Shown here piece after piece: positions 2,795 to 13,633 of a stretch of DNA of 13,633 nt. The stretch is from an uncultured Rubritalea sp. (GTDB lineage: Bacteria > Verrucomicrobiota > Verrucomicrobiia > Verrucomicrobiales > Akkermansiaceae): contig CALFBV010000017.1 of the NCBI GenBank assembly GCA_937951395.1, forward strand, positions 1-13,633, given 5' to 3'. The notes under the pieces were generated by a model. That model saw only the letters and a list, made by a program, of their open reading frames with translations. It did no database searches and had not been told where the DNA came from. The translations under genes and the position numbers were made by a program. The first letter of the stretch is position 1, and every line of letters begins with the position of its first letter.

Positions 2795-3205
2795 TCACCA
2801 CCAGACTACACACGAACTCGCGGGTATGCGAAGTTTTTTCTCAGGAAAATCAGAAACCATCTCAAAGCTAGAGAGCTGTGCTAGTTTTTTCCTTTTGATG
2901 CGCTTGGCTTTTAGGTTCAGGTCATTATCACGCACATCCTTGAGCTTCGCCTGCATCATCAATTTGTAACGGGCTACTACACCCTTAAACTTAGGGTCTT
3001 TTACCAGATTTGTGTATTGCTTAGGGTCACTCTTCACATCAAACAGCTCGACCCCATCTCCCACGTCTTCGCCATACTGAATGTAGGAAAAATGATCATC
3101 AGGCAGCAGACACCCTTTCCTCATAGGAGCAACACAAAATGCGGTTTCGCGCACCAAAAACGATCCTGGATGGACTCGATATTTAAGAAAATAGCAGACC
3201 TGAAG
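2795..3205 (-). pseudogene. C-terminal remnant of a sulfatase
   Basis: An open frame bounded upstream by a TAG at 3208-3206 and ending in TGA at 2797-2795. Its middle reads like the end of a secreted sulfatase: FSYIQYGEDVGDGVELFDVK followed by SDPKQYTNLVKDP matches the usual C-terminal layout where the Y-I-x-Y strand is followed by ELYD...DPxExxNL. There is no formylglycine motif, no metal-binding N-terminal domain, no signal peptide and no ATG at a sensible place (only a TTG at 3157). The tail after about residue 75 is basic and does not look family-like, so it may be frameshifted. I infer a decayed gene whose 5' part was deleted. It is not necessarily related to the intact-looking sulfatase at 12542, whose C-terminus is outside the window. 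Confidence 0.65.
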
Positions 3206-11430: not shown

Positions 11431-12168
11431 ATGAGAAAAACGAAACTAATCACCGCACTTGTAGCCACCATGCTTGCAGTGCTCCCATTCAGTGCATCTG
11501 CCGAAAATGGTGAACAGAATTTATCCAATTGGAAATTTAAAGAAACGATCATCGGAGAGAAGCCAACCGCCCAATACCTCAAAGGCAAAGTAGTAGTCAT
11601 AGAATACTGGGGAGTTAACTGACCACCTTGTATCGCAGGAATGCCCCATCTGGTTCAGATGGACAAAAAATTACGTGAAAAGGGACTCGTCATCATCGGT
11701 GCTGAGTGCCAAAGAAGCAGTAACGATAAAATCAAACAAGTCACTGACAACGCCAAAGTAGAATTCACAATTACCAAAGGAGTAAGCGGCCCAATGAAAG
11801 TCCGCGGCATACCAGTGGCTCTTGTCTTTGACACTAAAGGCAAGCTGATCTATAAAGGACATTCAAGTGATAATAATTTTGAGAGAACAGTAAAAAAAGC
11901 ACTTAAAGACGTGGTCTTAGAAGATGAGAAAGCCAGTAAAACGCCTGAAAAATCTAACCAGCCACTTATTGCTCAGCGTGCATGGACAAATTCTGAAGGA
12001 AAATCCATCACCGCATCAGTCACTCAGGTCAATGGAAAAGAAGTTACTTTCAAACTCCGAAACCTCAAAGTAGTCAAATATCAACTCTCTAAGCTCTCTG
12101 AAGCTGATCAGACTCTGATTAAGCAAGCAGTAGAAGACGCCGCTAAAGAGACAGCAGAAGCAGAATAA
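11431..12168 (+). CDS. Exported thioredoxin-like selenoprotein (UPPC redoxin with SHD1-like tail)
   Basis: One 245-residue protein if the in-frame TGA at 11620-11622 is read as selenocysteine (U64). Residues 1-24 form a signal peptide (MRKTKLITALVATMLAVLPF, cleavage near SASA|EN). Residues 38-150 form a TlpA/ResA-type thioredoxin fold: KGKVVVIEYWGVN-U-PPCIAGMPHL, where U64 takes the place of the first Cys of CPPC and C67 is the resolving Cys. GLVIIGAECQ follows, with the cis-proline in VRGIPVALVFDTKGKLIYKG. After a charged linker, residues about 181-235 (RAWTNSEGKSITASVTQVNG ... YQLSKLSEADQTLI) resemble SHD1, a tail frequent in planctomycete and verrucomicrobial secreted proteins. The role inferred is periplasmic thiol/selenol redox chemistry. 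Homology is continuous across the TGA in the same frame. Alternatives are a nonsense mutation of a Cys codon or a sequencing error; the SECIS-like hairpin downstream argues against both. Confidence 0.85.
11620..11666 (+). promoter_or_regulatory. SECIS-like element for the TGA at 11620
   Basis: Downstream of the TGA, CCATCT-GGTTC-AGATGG (11646-11662) gives a perfect 6-bp stem with a 5-base loop starting GG, with 29 nt between the TGA and the loop. A possible lower helix pairs TTGT (11628-11631) with ACAA (11663-11666). Bacterial SECIS elements are hairpins just 3' of the UGA whose apical loop has a G at its first positions and is bound by SelB; the E. coli fdhF loop is GGUCU. Spacing, loop and stem fit this. 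The hairpin lies within codons for PHLVQMD. Confidence 0.75.
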
Positions 12169-12219: not shown

Positions 12220-12286
12220 CACCCCGTCCTGTTTTTTAGACTTAGGCTTTCATCTAAGTCTACCCTACAAGGTGGGGTGTTTTTTT
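12220..12286 (+). terminator. Two-stem intrinsic terminator
   Basis: An outer helix pairs CACCCCGTCCTG (12220-12231) with CAAGGTGGGGTG (12268-12279), with two G-U pairs and one mismatch. It encloses a perfect 9-bp hairpin TAGACTTAG / CTAAGTCTA (12237-12245 with 12254-12262). Seven T follow at once (12280-12286). This ends the selenoprotein transcript. The nested form is more elaborate than a usual single-stem terminator. Confidence 0.8.
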
Positions 12287-12541
12287 GTGGAGGATCCCCC
12301 ACCGCGCGCTCAAACAGGTTTCCTGCCAAAGGAAAGCTTCGAGTCTAAATTCTAGTAATAAGAGAGCCTTCAGAGTCATGCCAAACGTTGGCTACATTCC
12401 AAGAGGAGTCCATGTGCTAGCCTCCATCATGAAGAAAAACTGTATAATAGCCCTTCGAACTAGATTTGCTACAATCTTTGCTCCTTCGAGTGGCTTATCT
12501 TGACCTACATGAAATATCTCTCATAATTCATATAACCAATC

Positions 12542-13633
12542 ATGATTGACTCAACATTATCATCCCTTTTAAAACCTAGTTATCTTCTTAGTGGACTCCT
12601 TATTTTTAGTAGCCTAGTTCATGCTCAGGATGAAGCTCCGGCGACAACTGAAAAAGATGCCGTAGCTCCGAAAACAGATCCTGACCCAGCGCTTGTGATT
12701 GAGAAGATTACGAATCAGCCTAATGTCATACTGCTCATGAGTGATGATCAGGGCTGGGGCGACTTTGGAGTGCATGGTAATGCGATCATTGAGACCCCAA
12801 ATCTCGATAACCTCTCTAAGAAAAGTGTGAGCTGGGAGATCTTCTACGTCAGCCCAGTATGCTCACCGACTAGAGCATCTCTAATGACGGGCAGATACAA
12901 TCAACGCACTAAGTGCCTCGATACCTACCTAGCCAGATCCATGATGGCAAGCGACGAAGTCACCATTGCAGAAGCTCTCCAGGGCGCAGGCTACGCTACA
13001 GGAATATTTGGTAAATGGCACCTTGGTGACAACTATCCGATGCGTCCTTCTGACCAAGGTTTTGAATATTCATTCATCCATAAAGGTGGTGGTCTAGCTC
13101 AGCCTGCAGACCCCATTGAGAACAACGAACGCTACACAAATCCGATCCTATTTAGAAATAACAAAGAGACAACAACTGAAGGATACTGCACTGATCTGTA
13201 TTTTGAAGAAGCTATCAAATTCATCAATGATTGCCAAACTGCTGAGCGACCATTCTTCACCTACATTGCTACTAATGCTCCGCATGGTCCATTCGGTGAT
13301 GTTCCTGAGGAATTACTAGCGCATTATAAAGCAAAGGACATCGCTTCTATTCTGCCAGAGAACTTAAAAACTAATGAAAAGCAATTAGACACAGTAGCAC
13401 GCGTCGCAGCGATGATTACTAACTTCGATCAGAACGTAGGCAAACTCATCAGCGCTCTCGGTGAAAAGAAACTCTTAGAAAACACTATCATCATTTACCT
13501 CAATGATAATGGGCCTAACACGACCCGTCACACTGGAGCATTCCGTGGCAGGAAAGCTGACGTCCAGGAAGGTGGTATCCGTTCACCTCTCTGGATTCAT
13601 TGGCCCGCTAAATTTAAGTCAGCAAAGAAGATC
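12542..13633 (+). CDS. Secreted formylglycine-dependent sulfatase, N-terminal part (runs off the window)
   Basis: The window holds 364 codons without a stop; the C-terminal part is missing. Residues 1-28 form a signal peptide with likely cleavage at VHA|QD. A low-complexity Ala/Pro/Asp/Lys linker (about 30-52) precedes the alkaline-phosphatase-like sulfatase domain NQPNVILLMSDDQGWGDFGV, where D68/D69 bind the metal. The formylglycine signature is C107-S-P-T-R111-x4-LMTGR, the classical type I form in which C107 is converted to formylglycine. GIFGKWHLGD (K158, H160), ATNAPHGPFG, YLNDNGPNTTRH and GGIRSPLWIHWP complete the usual order. Substrate is probably a sulfated polysaccharide or ester outside the cytoplasm, which cannot be specified. 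The ATG at 12542 is preferred because it gives a full signal peptide. A separate anaerobic or aerobic maturase must act on C107; none is in the window. Confidence 0.93.
   Translation, partial: MIDSTLSSLLKPSYLLSGLLIFSSLVHAQDEAPATTEKDAVAPKTDPDPALVIEKITNQPNVILLMSDDQGWGDFGVHGNAIIETPNLDNLSKKSVSWEIFYVSPVCSPTRASLMTGRYNQRTKCLDTYLARSMMASDEVTIAEALQGAGYATGIFGKWHLGDNYPMRPSDQGFEYSFIHKGGGLAQPADPIENNERYTNPILFRNNKETTTEGYCTDLYFEEAIKFINDCQTAERPFFTYIATNAPHGPFGDVPEELLAHYKAKDIASILPENLKTNEKQLDTVARVAAMITNFDQNVGKLISALGEKKLLENTIIIYLNDNGPNTTRHTGAFRGRKADVQEGGIRSPLWIHWPAKFKSAKKI

What the first reader, a model, noticed from the sequence alone, without database searches (positions are those of the whole stretch)
11431..12168. 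Hidden selenoprotein: TGA at the active-site position of a TlpA-like redoxin
Two ORFs in one frame are separated by a single TGA. The first has the signal peptide and the strand before the active site; the second has the rest of the fold. The TGA sits at the first Cys of the CPPC motif, giving WGVN-U-PPC-IAGMPHL. Selenocysteine replacing the redox Cys of a thioredoxin-fold protein is a recurrent pattern among bacterial selenoproteins. TGA ends the DUF3472 gene normally here, so this is specific recoding. A gene caller would split it and leave an export-less 175-residue orphan. I do not know of a described selenoprotein with this exported UPPC plus SHD1-like layout.
Basis: partly seen in the sequence, partly recalled or inferred. 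Interest (0 to 1): 0.93.

Follow-up and report, generated by a model that had tools for sequence, protein, structure and literature searches.

The report
Exported selenoprotein hidden as two genes
A stop-like TGA in the middle of this bacterial gene is almost certainly read as selenocysteine, making a secreted thioredoxin-like enzyme, many of whose relatives sit in databases as headless fragments.

Summary
The finding holds. Window 11431-12168 is one frame broken only by TGA at 11620-11622, at the first Cys of a TlpA/ResA-type CxxC motif (WGVN-U-PPC). The window's own genome, an incomplete MAG (58%), encodes SelA, a SelD that itself carries an in-frame TGA (CGGUASKL), and the last 118 residues of a SelB cut off by a contig end. 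tRNA-Sec was not found in this assembly. Of 63 related loci in named genomes, 23 have TGA and 40 Cys at this position. SelA, SelB or tRNA-Sec is present in 22 of 23 TGA genomes and 2 of 27 Cys genomes tested. A hairpin of the published bacterial SECIS type, in the window CCAUCUG-GUU-CAGAUGG 24-40 nt after the UGA, occurs in 24 of 26 TGA genes and 0 of 40 Cys genes; synonymous recoding gives 2.5 of 26 on average (maximum 8). In a 5.8-billion-protein search, 48 of 114 homologues begin shortly after the UGA. TlpA-like UxxC selenoproteins are a known kind. This verrucomicrobial family, mostly with an SHD1-like tail, was not recognisable in the catalogue of 119 families that I read, and the window protein passes no NCBIfam cut-off. 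Sec insertion is inferred, not tested.

The parts
11431..12168 (+). Whole selenoprotein gene: 245 codons incl. one UGA, then TAA
11431..11502 (+). Signal peptide (MRKTKLITALVATMLAVLPFSASA), cleavage site judged by eye
   Evidence: sequence; no predictor was run
11530..11874 (+). Redoxin / AhpC-TSA (TlpA-ResA-like thioredoxin fold), residues 34-148
   Evidence: Pfam PF00578 34.8 bits, PF08534 29.2 bits, both over cut-off; ResA and Redoxin PDB chains
11620..11622 (+). UGA codon 64, read as selenocysteine at the N-terminal catalytic position of UPPC
   Evidence: aligned with Cys of homologues and with the CxxC of solved ResA-type proteins
11629..11631 (+). Cys67, resolving Cys of the UxxC motif (invariant in A1)
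11646..11662 (+). Bacterial SECIS-type hairpin CCAUCUG-GUU-CAGAUGG, 7 bp, GUU apical loop 30 nt after the UGA, -7.7 kcal/mol
11812..11814 (+). Pro128 of the conserved GIP, the expected cis-Pro of the thioredoxin fold
   Evidence: invariant in A1 and A2; cis-Pro role recalled, no structure obtained
11962..12138 (+). SHD1-like C-terminal domain (about residues 178-236)
   Evidence: PF03983 at E<=0.1 in 9 of 14 members of A1 and alignment A1; the window protein itself gives no PF03983 match at E<=0.1
12261..12279 (+). Terminator-like hairpin plus T-run downstream of the gene
   Evidence: 2 overlapping sites found, 0.9 expected in shuffles

Best explanation
The gene encodes an exported thioredoxin-fold oxidoreductase of the TlpA/ResA type with a selenocysteine at the attacking position of its active site (U64-P-P-C67) and an SHD1-like tail. 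During translation the mRNA hairpin that follows the UGA (window 11646-11662) binds SelB carrying Sec-tRNA-Sec. SelA makes Sec-tRNA-Sec with selenophosphate from SelD, and Sec is inserted instead of termination (inferred from established bacterial Sec biology and the genes present). After export the selenolate of U64 should attack disulfides (or oxidised thiols or peroxides), and C67 should resolve the mixed selenenyl-sulfide. The SHD1-like tail probably docks a partner or substrate. Shown: the conserved UGA/Cys exchange, the SECIS-type hairpin, the Sec machinery and the fold family. Inferred: actual Sec insertion, export and redox activity. Guessed: the substrate and the role of the tail.
For: Homology across the UGA. 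TGA in 23 and Cys in 40 of 63 genome loci. SelA over cut-off in 21 of 23 TGA genomes vs 2 of 27 Cys genomes, SelB over cut-off in 17 of 23 vs 1 of 27, tRNA-Sec in 16 of 23 vs 2 of 27 (15 of the 16 also by ARAGORN); any of the three in 22 of 23 vs 2 of 27, Fisher p about 1e-10 (related genomes are not independent). Own genome: SelA 419 bits, SelD 382 bits with its own UGA, SelB C-terminus at a contig edge, E 1.7e-27, PF09107 50.4 bits. SECIS-type hairpin in 24 of 26 TGA genes vs 0 of 40 Cys genes; synonymous resampling mean 2.46, maximum 8 of 26 in 500 runs. The own SelD gene has the same GUU apical loop at a similar distance from its UGA.
Against: No tRNA-Sec was found in the own assembly (the MAG is 58% complete), and its SelB is only a fragment. 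L077 (a TGA gene) has no hairpin of the required kind and L024 only a weak one. Several other TGA-gene hairpins taken alone miss the model's limit of -7.5 kcal/mol, for example -4.4 in four of them. For the window alone, folding energy against synonymous recodings is unremarkable (488 of 5000 as low); the case rests on conservation. One TGA genome (G070) shows none of SelA, SelB or tRNA-Sec over cut-off. One relative (L034) has Arg at the site. No direct evidence of protein.
Confidence: 0.96

Rival explanations
1. The gene is a pseudogene or the TGA is a sequencing/assembly error for TGT/TGC.
For: A single TGA could arise from one base change; the source is a fragmented MAG.
Against: The same TGA at the same column occurs in 23 of 63 loci from other assemblies, at 26-51% identity in the best segment, with a hairpin specific to TGA genes and co-occurring Sec machinery.
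Confidence: 0.01
2. Two proteins are made: a 63-residue export fragment and a 175-residue protein restarted at the ATG after the UGA (MPHLV...).
For: In TGA genes the codon at this place is ATG in 21 of 26, in Cys genes in 3 of 40; 48 of 114 database homologues are annotated from a start shortly after the UGA.
Against: The ATG is missing in 5 of 26 TGA genes while the UGA stays; the short product would lack the signal peptide, the first strands and the first catalytic residue; uninterrupted Cys versions are found in genomes of which 25 of 27 tested lack SelA.
Confidence: 0.02
3. TGA is read as tryptophan (code 4/25-like reassignment) or by general suppression.
For: One database protein (P0003, 63% identical) has Trp at this site, presumably a TGA translated as Trp by a gene caller (not checked at DNA level).
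Against: TGA ends the DUF3472 gene and is in frame in none of the ten other window genes checked; the 40 non-TGA loci have Cys, none Trp.
Confidence: 0.005

Closest known systems
TlpA/ResA/DsbE family of exported thiol-disulfide oxidoreductases (NF002854 ResA, NF047696 TlpA, cd02966)
   Same: Thioredoxin fold with CxxC after a W-G/A-x-x motif; ResA is the best NCBIfam match and among the best PDB matches.
   Different: Scores far below those models' cut-offs (44 of 170 bits for ResA); Sec in place of the first Cys; SHD1-like tail.
Thiol-disulfide isomerase-like UxxC selenoprotein (cd02966, Sargasso Sea 2005), 'Redoxin family protein' UxxC (PF08534) and 'UGC-containing TlpA disulfide reductase' in the 2026 catalogue PMC13188914
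   Same: TlpA-like or redoxin fold, Sec as first residue of the motif (table read; Sargasso passages).
   Different: Representative sequences could not be compared here; the catalogue's text mentions neither SHD1 nor Verrucomicrob-.
NF041054 ResA-like WAxxUGC motif-containing protein
   Same: ResA-like domain, by its name with Sec after a WAxx segment; 9 of 14 members of A1 hit it at E<=0.01.
   Different: Window protein scores 14.5 bits against a cut-off of 300; motif is UPPC/UGPC, not UGC.
SHD1 (PF03983) extracellular proteins of bacteria
   Same: SHD1 is an SH3-fold domain also found in extracellular bacterial proteins (PMC5906684 passages).
   Different: Here joined to a Sec redoxin; its ligand in bacteria is unknown to me.

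Membership tests
Bacterial selenoprotein gene | In-frame UGA aligned with a catalytic Cys of homologues | tested here: met
   63 of 63 loci have TGA (23) or Cys (40); one further relative, L034, has Arg
Bacterial selenoprotein gene | SECIS hairpin: loop 3-9 nt with G in its first two positions, stem 4-16 bp, 16-37 nt from UGA, energy -7.5 or lower (model of PMC13188914) | tested here: met
   window: 7 bp, GUU, 30 nt, -7.7; family 24 of 26 by my looser energy criterion (at least 5 pairs, G followed by G/U at the loop start, -4 or lower)
Bacterial selenoprotein gene | SelA, SelB, SelD and tRNA-Sec in the genome | tested here: inconclusive
   SelA and SelD complete, SelB 3' end, tRNA-Sec not found in a 58% complete MAG; SelA, SelB and tRNA-Sec together in relatives such as G058 and G059 (SelD not searched there)
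Bacterial selenoprotein gene | Selenium in the protein | not testable with these tools
   needs 75Se labelling or mass spectrometry
TlpA/ResA-like thiol-disulfide oxidoreductase | Redoxin/AhpC-TSA fold with [CU]xxC and conserved Pro | tested here: met
   PF00578 and PF08534 over cut-off; P128 invariant; aligned with ResA CxxC; no structure model obtained
ResA (NF002854) | Score over the model's cut-off | tested here: not met
   44.1 of 170 bits
ResA-like WAxxUGC selenoprotein (NF041054) | Score over cut-off | tested here: not met
   14.5 of 300 bits
SHD1 domain protein | PF03983 match | tested here: inconclusive
   none in the window protein; 9 of 14 members of A1 match at E<=0.1; tail aligns
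Exported protein | N-terminal signal peptide | tested here: inconclusive
   basic start, hydrophobic stretch and ASA seen by eye; no predictor available

The most novel reading that the evidence does not exclude
This is an undescribed selenoprotein family centred on Verrucomicrobiota: an exported UxxC redoxin, mostly with an SHD1-like docking tail, that has swapped Sec and Cys several times (7-8 changes on the tree, at least 3 forced by well-supported branches), carries a strongly conserved GUU-loop SECIS, and acts as a secreted selenium-dependent redox relay.
Probability: 0.5. Interest if true: 0.55.

Novelty: new member of a known kind. Interest (0 to 1): 0.45.

Why it matters
It adds a family to the selenoproteome of a phylum for which my literature searches (open-access library, capped lists) showed no selenoproteome paper. 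It also suggests that public protein sets often hold only the headless C-terminal part (48 of 114 homologues, one of them the window's own ORF), sometimes named TlpA disulfide reductase although the first catalytic residue is missing. A set of Sec and Cys versions within one family, with matching presence or absence of Sec machinery, makes the question of why Sec is kept or lost testable, and a cultured member (Roseibacillus persicicus) exists.

Tried and rejected
Pseudogene, sequencing error, re-initiation and TGA=Trp were considered and rejected (see rivals). Folding energy of the window segment alone against synonymous recodings was not significant (488 of 5000); only the family-wide hairpin test was. 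NCBIfam WAxxUGC was tested as a home and rejected. Gene neighbourhoods of 12 of the 23 TGA loci were listed and judged by eye: three close relatives (L061, L063, L068) share downstream genes, otherwise I saw no shared operon; some have a sulfatase-like gene upstream, which may only reflect how many such genes these bacteria have (not tested). Rfam found nothing over gathering score in the window. Structure prediction was never run: the queue was full, so the fold rests on profile matches. Literature: searches; in the lists shown (20 of 25 papers, 20 of 283) no title was a verrucomicrobial selenoproteome paper; most were not opened. The mSystems paper by Haft and Tolstoy is not held.

Full report
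The observation. The window holds one frame from ATG 11431 to TAA 12168, broken by a single TGA at codon 64 (11620-11622). The part before carries a signal-peptide-like start and the first strands; in the mechanical ORF list the part after starts at an ATG seven codons later (11641). Ten other genes of the window have no in-frame TGA, and one of them (DUF3472, PF11958) ends in TGA.

What the protein is. With TGA read through, the product matches AhpC-TSA and Redoxin over Pfam cut-offs. Its best curated relatives are ResA and TlpA, but far below those models' cut-offs. A family profile (A2, 49 sequences) matches a solved Redoxin domain protein (28db, 107 bits) and ResA. The U column lines up with the first Cys of WGINCPPC and WGTWCKPC in them. 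C67 and P128 are invariant in A1. The tail matches SHD1 (PF03983) at E<=0.1 in 9 of 14 members of A1, though not in the window protein itself. The tail is not universal: a simple signature of it (W[TS][ND]xxG) is present in 19 of 26 TGA and 17 of 40 Cys rows of the tree set (one TGA row, L072, is cut short by a TAG), and L024, a TGA gene from the same genus as the window, ends before it.

UGA against Cys. One search covered 58 genomes, the own one included. I read L016-L035, the 20 best of the 29 further loci it returned: 9 have TGA, 10 Cys and 1 Arg at this position. A scan of the 84,980-species genome collection with a conserved-peptide pattern gave 63 loci, nearly all Verrucomicrobiota: 23 TGA, 40 Cys. 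One TGA locus, L107, is planctomycetal and distant. On a tree of 67 proteins (60 of the 63 loci, L104-L106 left out, plus the window and six loci) the Sec/Cys label changes 7-8 times at minimum, of which starred branches force 3; shuffled labels need about 21.

Sec machinery. I searched 50 genomes: 23 with TGA, and those of 27 of the 40 Cys loci (of the 13 left out, five are second copies in tested genomes). SelA is over cut-off in 21 of 23 and 2 of 27. SelB is over cut-off in 17 of 23 and 1 of 27; TGA genome G072 has a SelB of 219.7 bits, just under the cut-off, and the Cys genome G095 has SelB pieces. tRNA-Sec is in 16 of 23 and 2 of 27, counting ARAGORN SeC(tca) plus L150, which Infernal alone supports (60.2 bits). 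Of the other hits over Rfam's cut-off, five were tRNA-Ser or tRNA-Leu by ARAGORN, and five listed ones (G058 one, G079 two, G096 one, G106 one) were not checked. At least one of the three: 22 of 23 against 2 of 27. The two Cys genomes with machinery, G095 and G096 (L079, L080), sit next to a TGA gene on the tree, as expected for a recent Sec-to-Cys change. Own genome: SelA; SelD, itself with UGA in CGGUASKL; 118 C-terminal residues of SelB at the very start of contig C95, 47% identical to a relative's SelB, with the winged helix PF09107. No tRNA-Sec in an assembly rated 58% complete (eight of its nine weak hits were checked by ARAGORN and are other tRNAs).

SECIS. The 2026 review (PMC13188914; outline and abstract, passages, section 6, section 7 parts 1-2 of 3, and part of its references read; [quoted passage not shown] The window hairpin has 7 bp, loop GUU, distance 30 nt, -7.7 kcal/mol. 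With a uniform, looser energy criterion (at least 5 pairs, G followed by G or U at the loop start, -4 kcal/mol or lower) 24 of 26 TGA genes pass and 0 of 40 Cys genes; at -2 it is 25 of 26 and 0 of 40. Synonymous resampling of the TGA genes passes 2.46 of 26 on average and at most 8 in 500 runs. The exact string CATCTGGTTCAGATG is in 17 of 26 TGA genes and 0 of 40 Cys genes. L075, L085 and L029 instead form a different hairpin, shifted 5 nt towards the UGA, with an AGUUG loop, so structure rather than sequence alone is kept. The own SelD gene has an 8-bp hairpin with the same GUU loop 33 nt after its UGA. Against: L077 has no such hairpin, L024 a weak one, several hairpins taken alone miss the model's energy limit, and the window's energy alone is not unusual.

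Databases. Of 114 homologues found among 5.8 billion proteins, 48 (one of them the window's own ORF) start shortly after the UGA position, 57 have Cys in the motif, 1 has Trp there and 8 fit none of these. That the 48 lack their first part because of a UGA is inferred for most; for Roseibacillus persicicus the 169-residue hypothetical protein (P0045) matches the TGA locus L045. MAG records call two such fragments TlpA family protein (P0014, P0067).

Novelty. The review's table, read in full, lists 119 families by the authors' count, among them a thiol-disulfide isomerase-like UxxC protein (cd02966; reported from the Sargasso Sea, PMC1088965 passages), a Redoxin-family UxxC protein and a UGC-containing TlpA protein. 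I could not fetch their representative sequences, so I cannot say that this family is unlisted; the review's text has no SHD1 and no Verrucomicrob-. NCBIfam release 20 has no model over cut-off for the window protein; the other members of A1 mostly hit the same models (cut-offs are printed only for the window protein). Passages of PMC2398784 and PMC5029168 and a term search in PMC12013277 showed nothing on this family; passages of PMC4807772 concern planctomycetal selenoproteins. I file it as a new member of a known kind, TlpA-like UxxC selenoproteins, with a distinctive tail.

Mechanism. Established bacterial Sec biology plus the anatomy give the sequence stated in the best explanation. Sec at the attacking position should make a faster nucleophile than Cys (general knowledge). 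Substrate, electron donor and role of the SHD1 tail are unknown.

Noticed in passing
L013 (G000:C180), match 1501-2424: SelD of the same genome is itself a UGA gene (CGGUASKL), followed by an 8-bp hairpin with the same GUU loop.
   Followed up: partly
L163 (G000:C95:3-359): SelB 3' end cut by the contig start; the selB profile missed it, a relative's SelB protein found it.
   Followed up: yes
L034 (G055:C46), codon at the UGA column: A relative has Arg (CGC) at the catalytic position with the resolving Cys kept: a loss of the redox pair or another function.
   Followed up: no
L107 (VGYY01000170.1): A distant planctomycetal TlpA-like protein also has UGA (WGTRUPPC) in a genome with SelA, SelB and tRNA-Sec; probably a separate UxxC family.
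   Followed up: partly
codon 7 after the UGA in TGA genes (window 11641-11643): ATG in 21 of 26 TGA genes but 3 of 40 Cys genes; it gives gene callers a start there and is unexplained apart from descent.
   Followed up: partly
L072 / L023: A TGA family member has an additional in-frame TAG after the UGA, possibly an assembly error or a decaying copy.
   Followed up: no
window 2795-3157 (-): A 120-residue ORF resembles only the C-terminus of a sulfatase (PF16347, below cut-off) and slightly overlaps the start of a UVR-motif gene: a likely gene remnant.
   Followed up: no
window 12285-13633: About 1.3 kb after the terminator-like site has no complete ORF of 80 aa or more.
   Followed up: no
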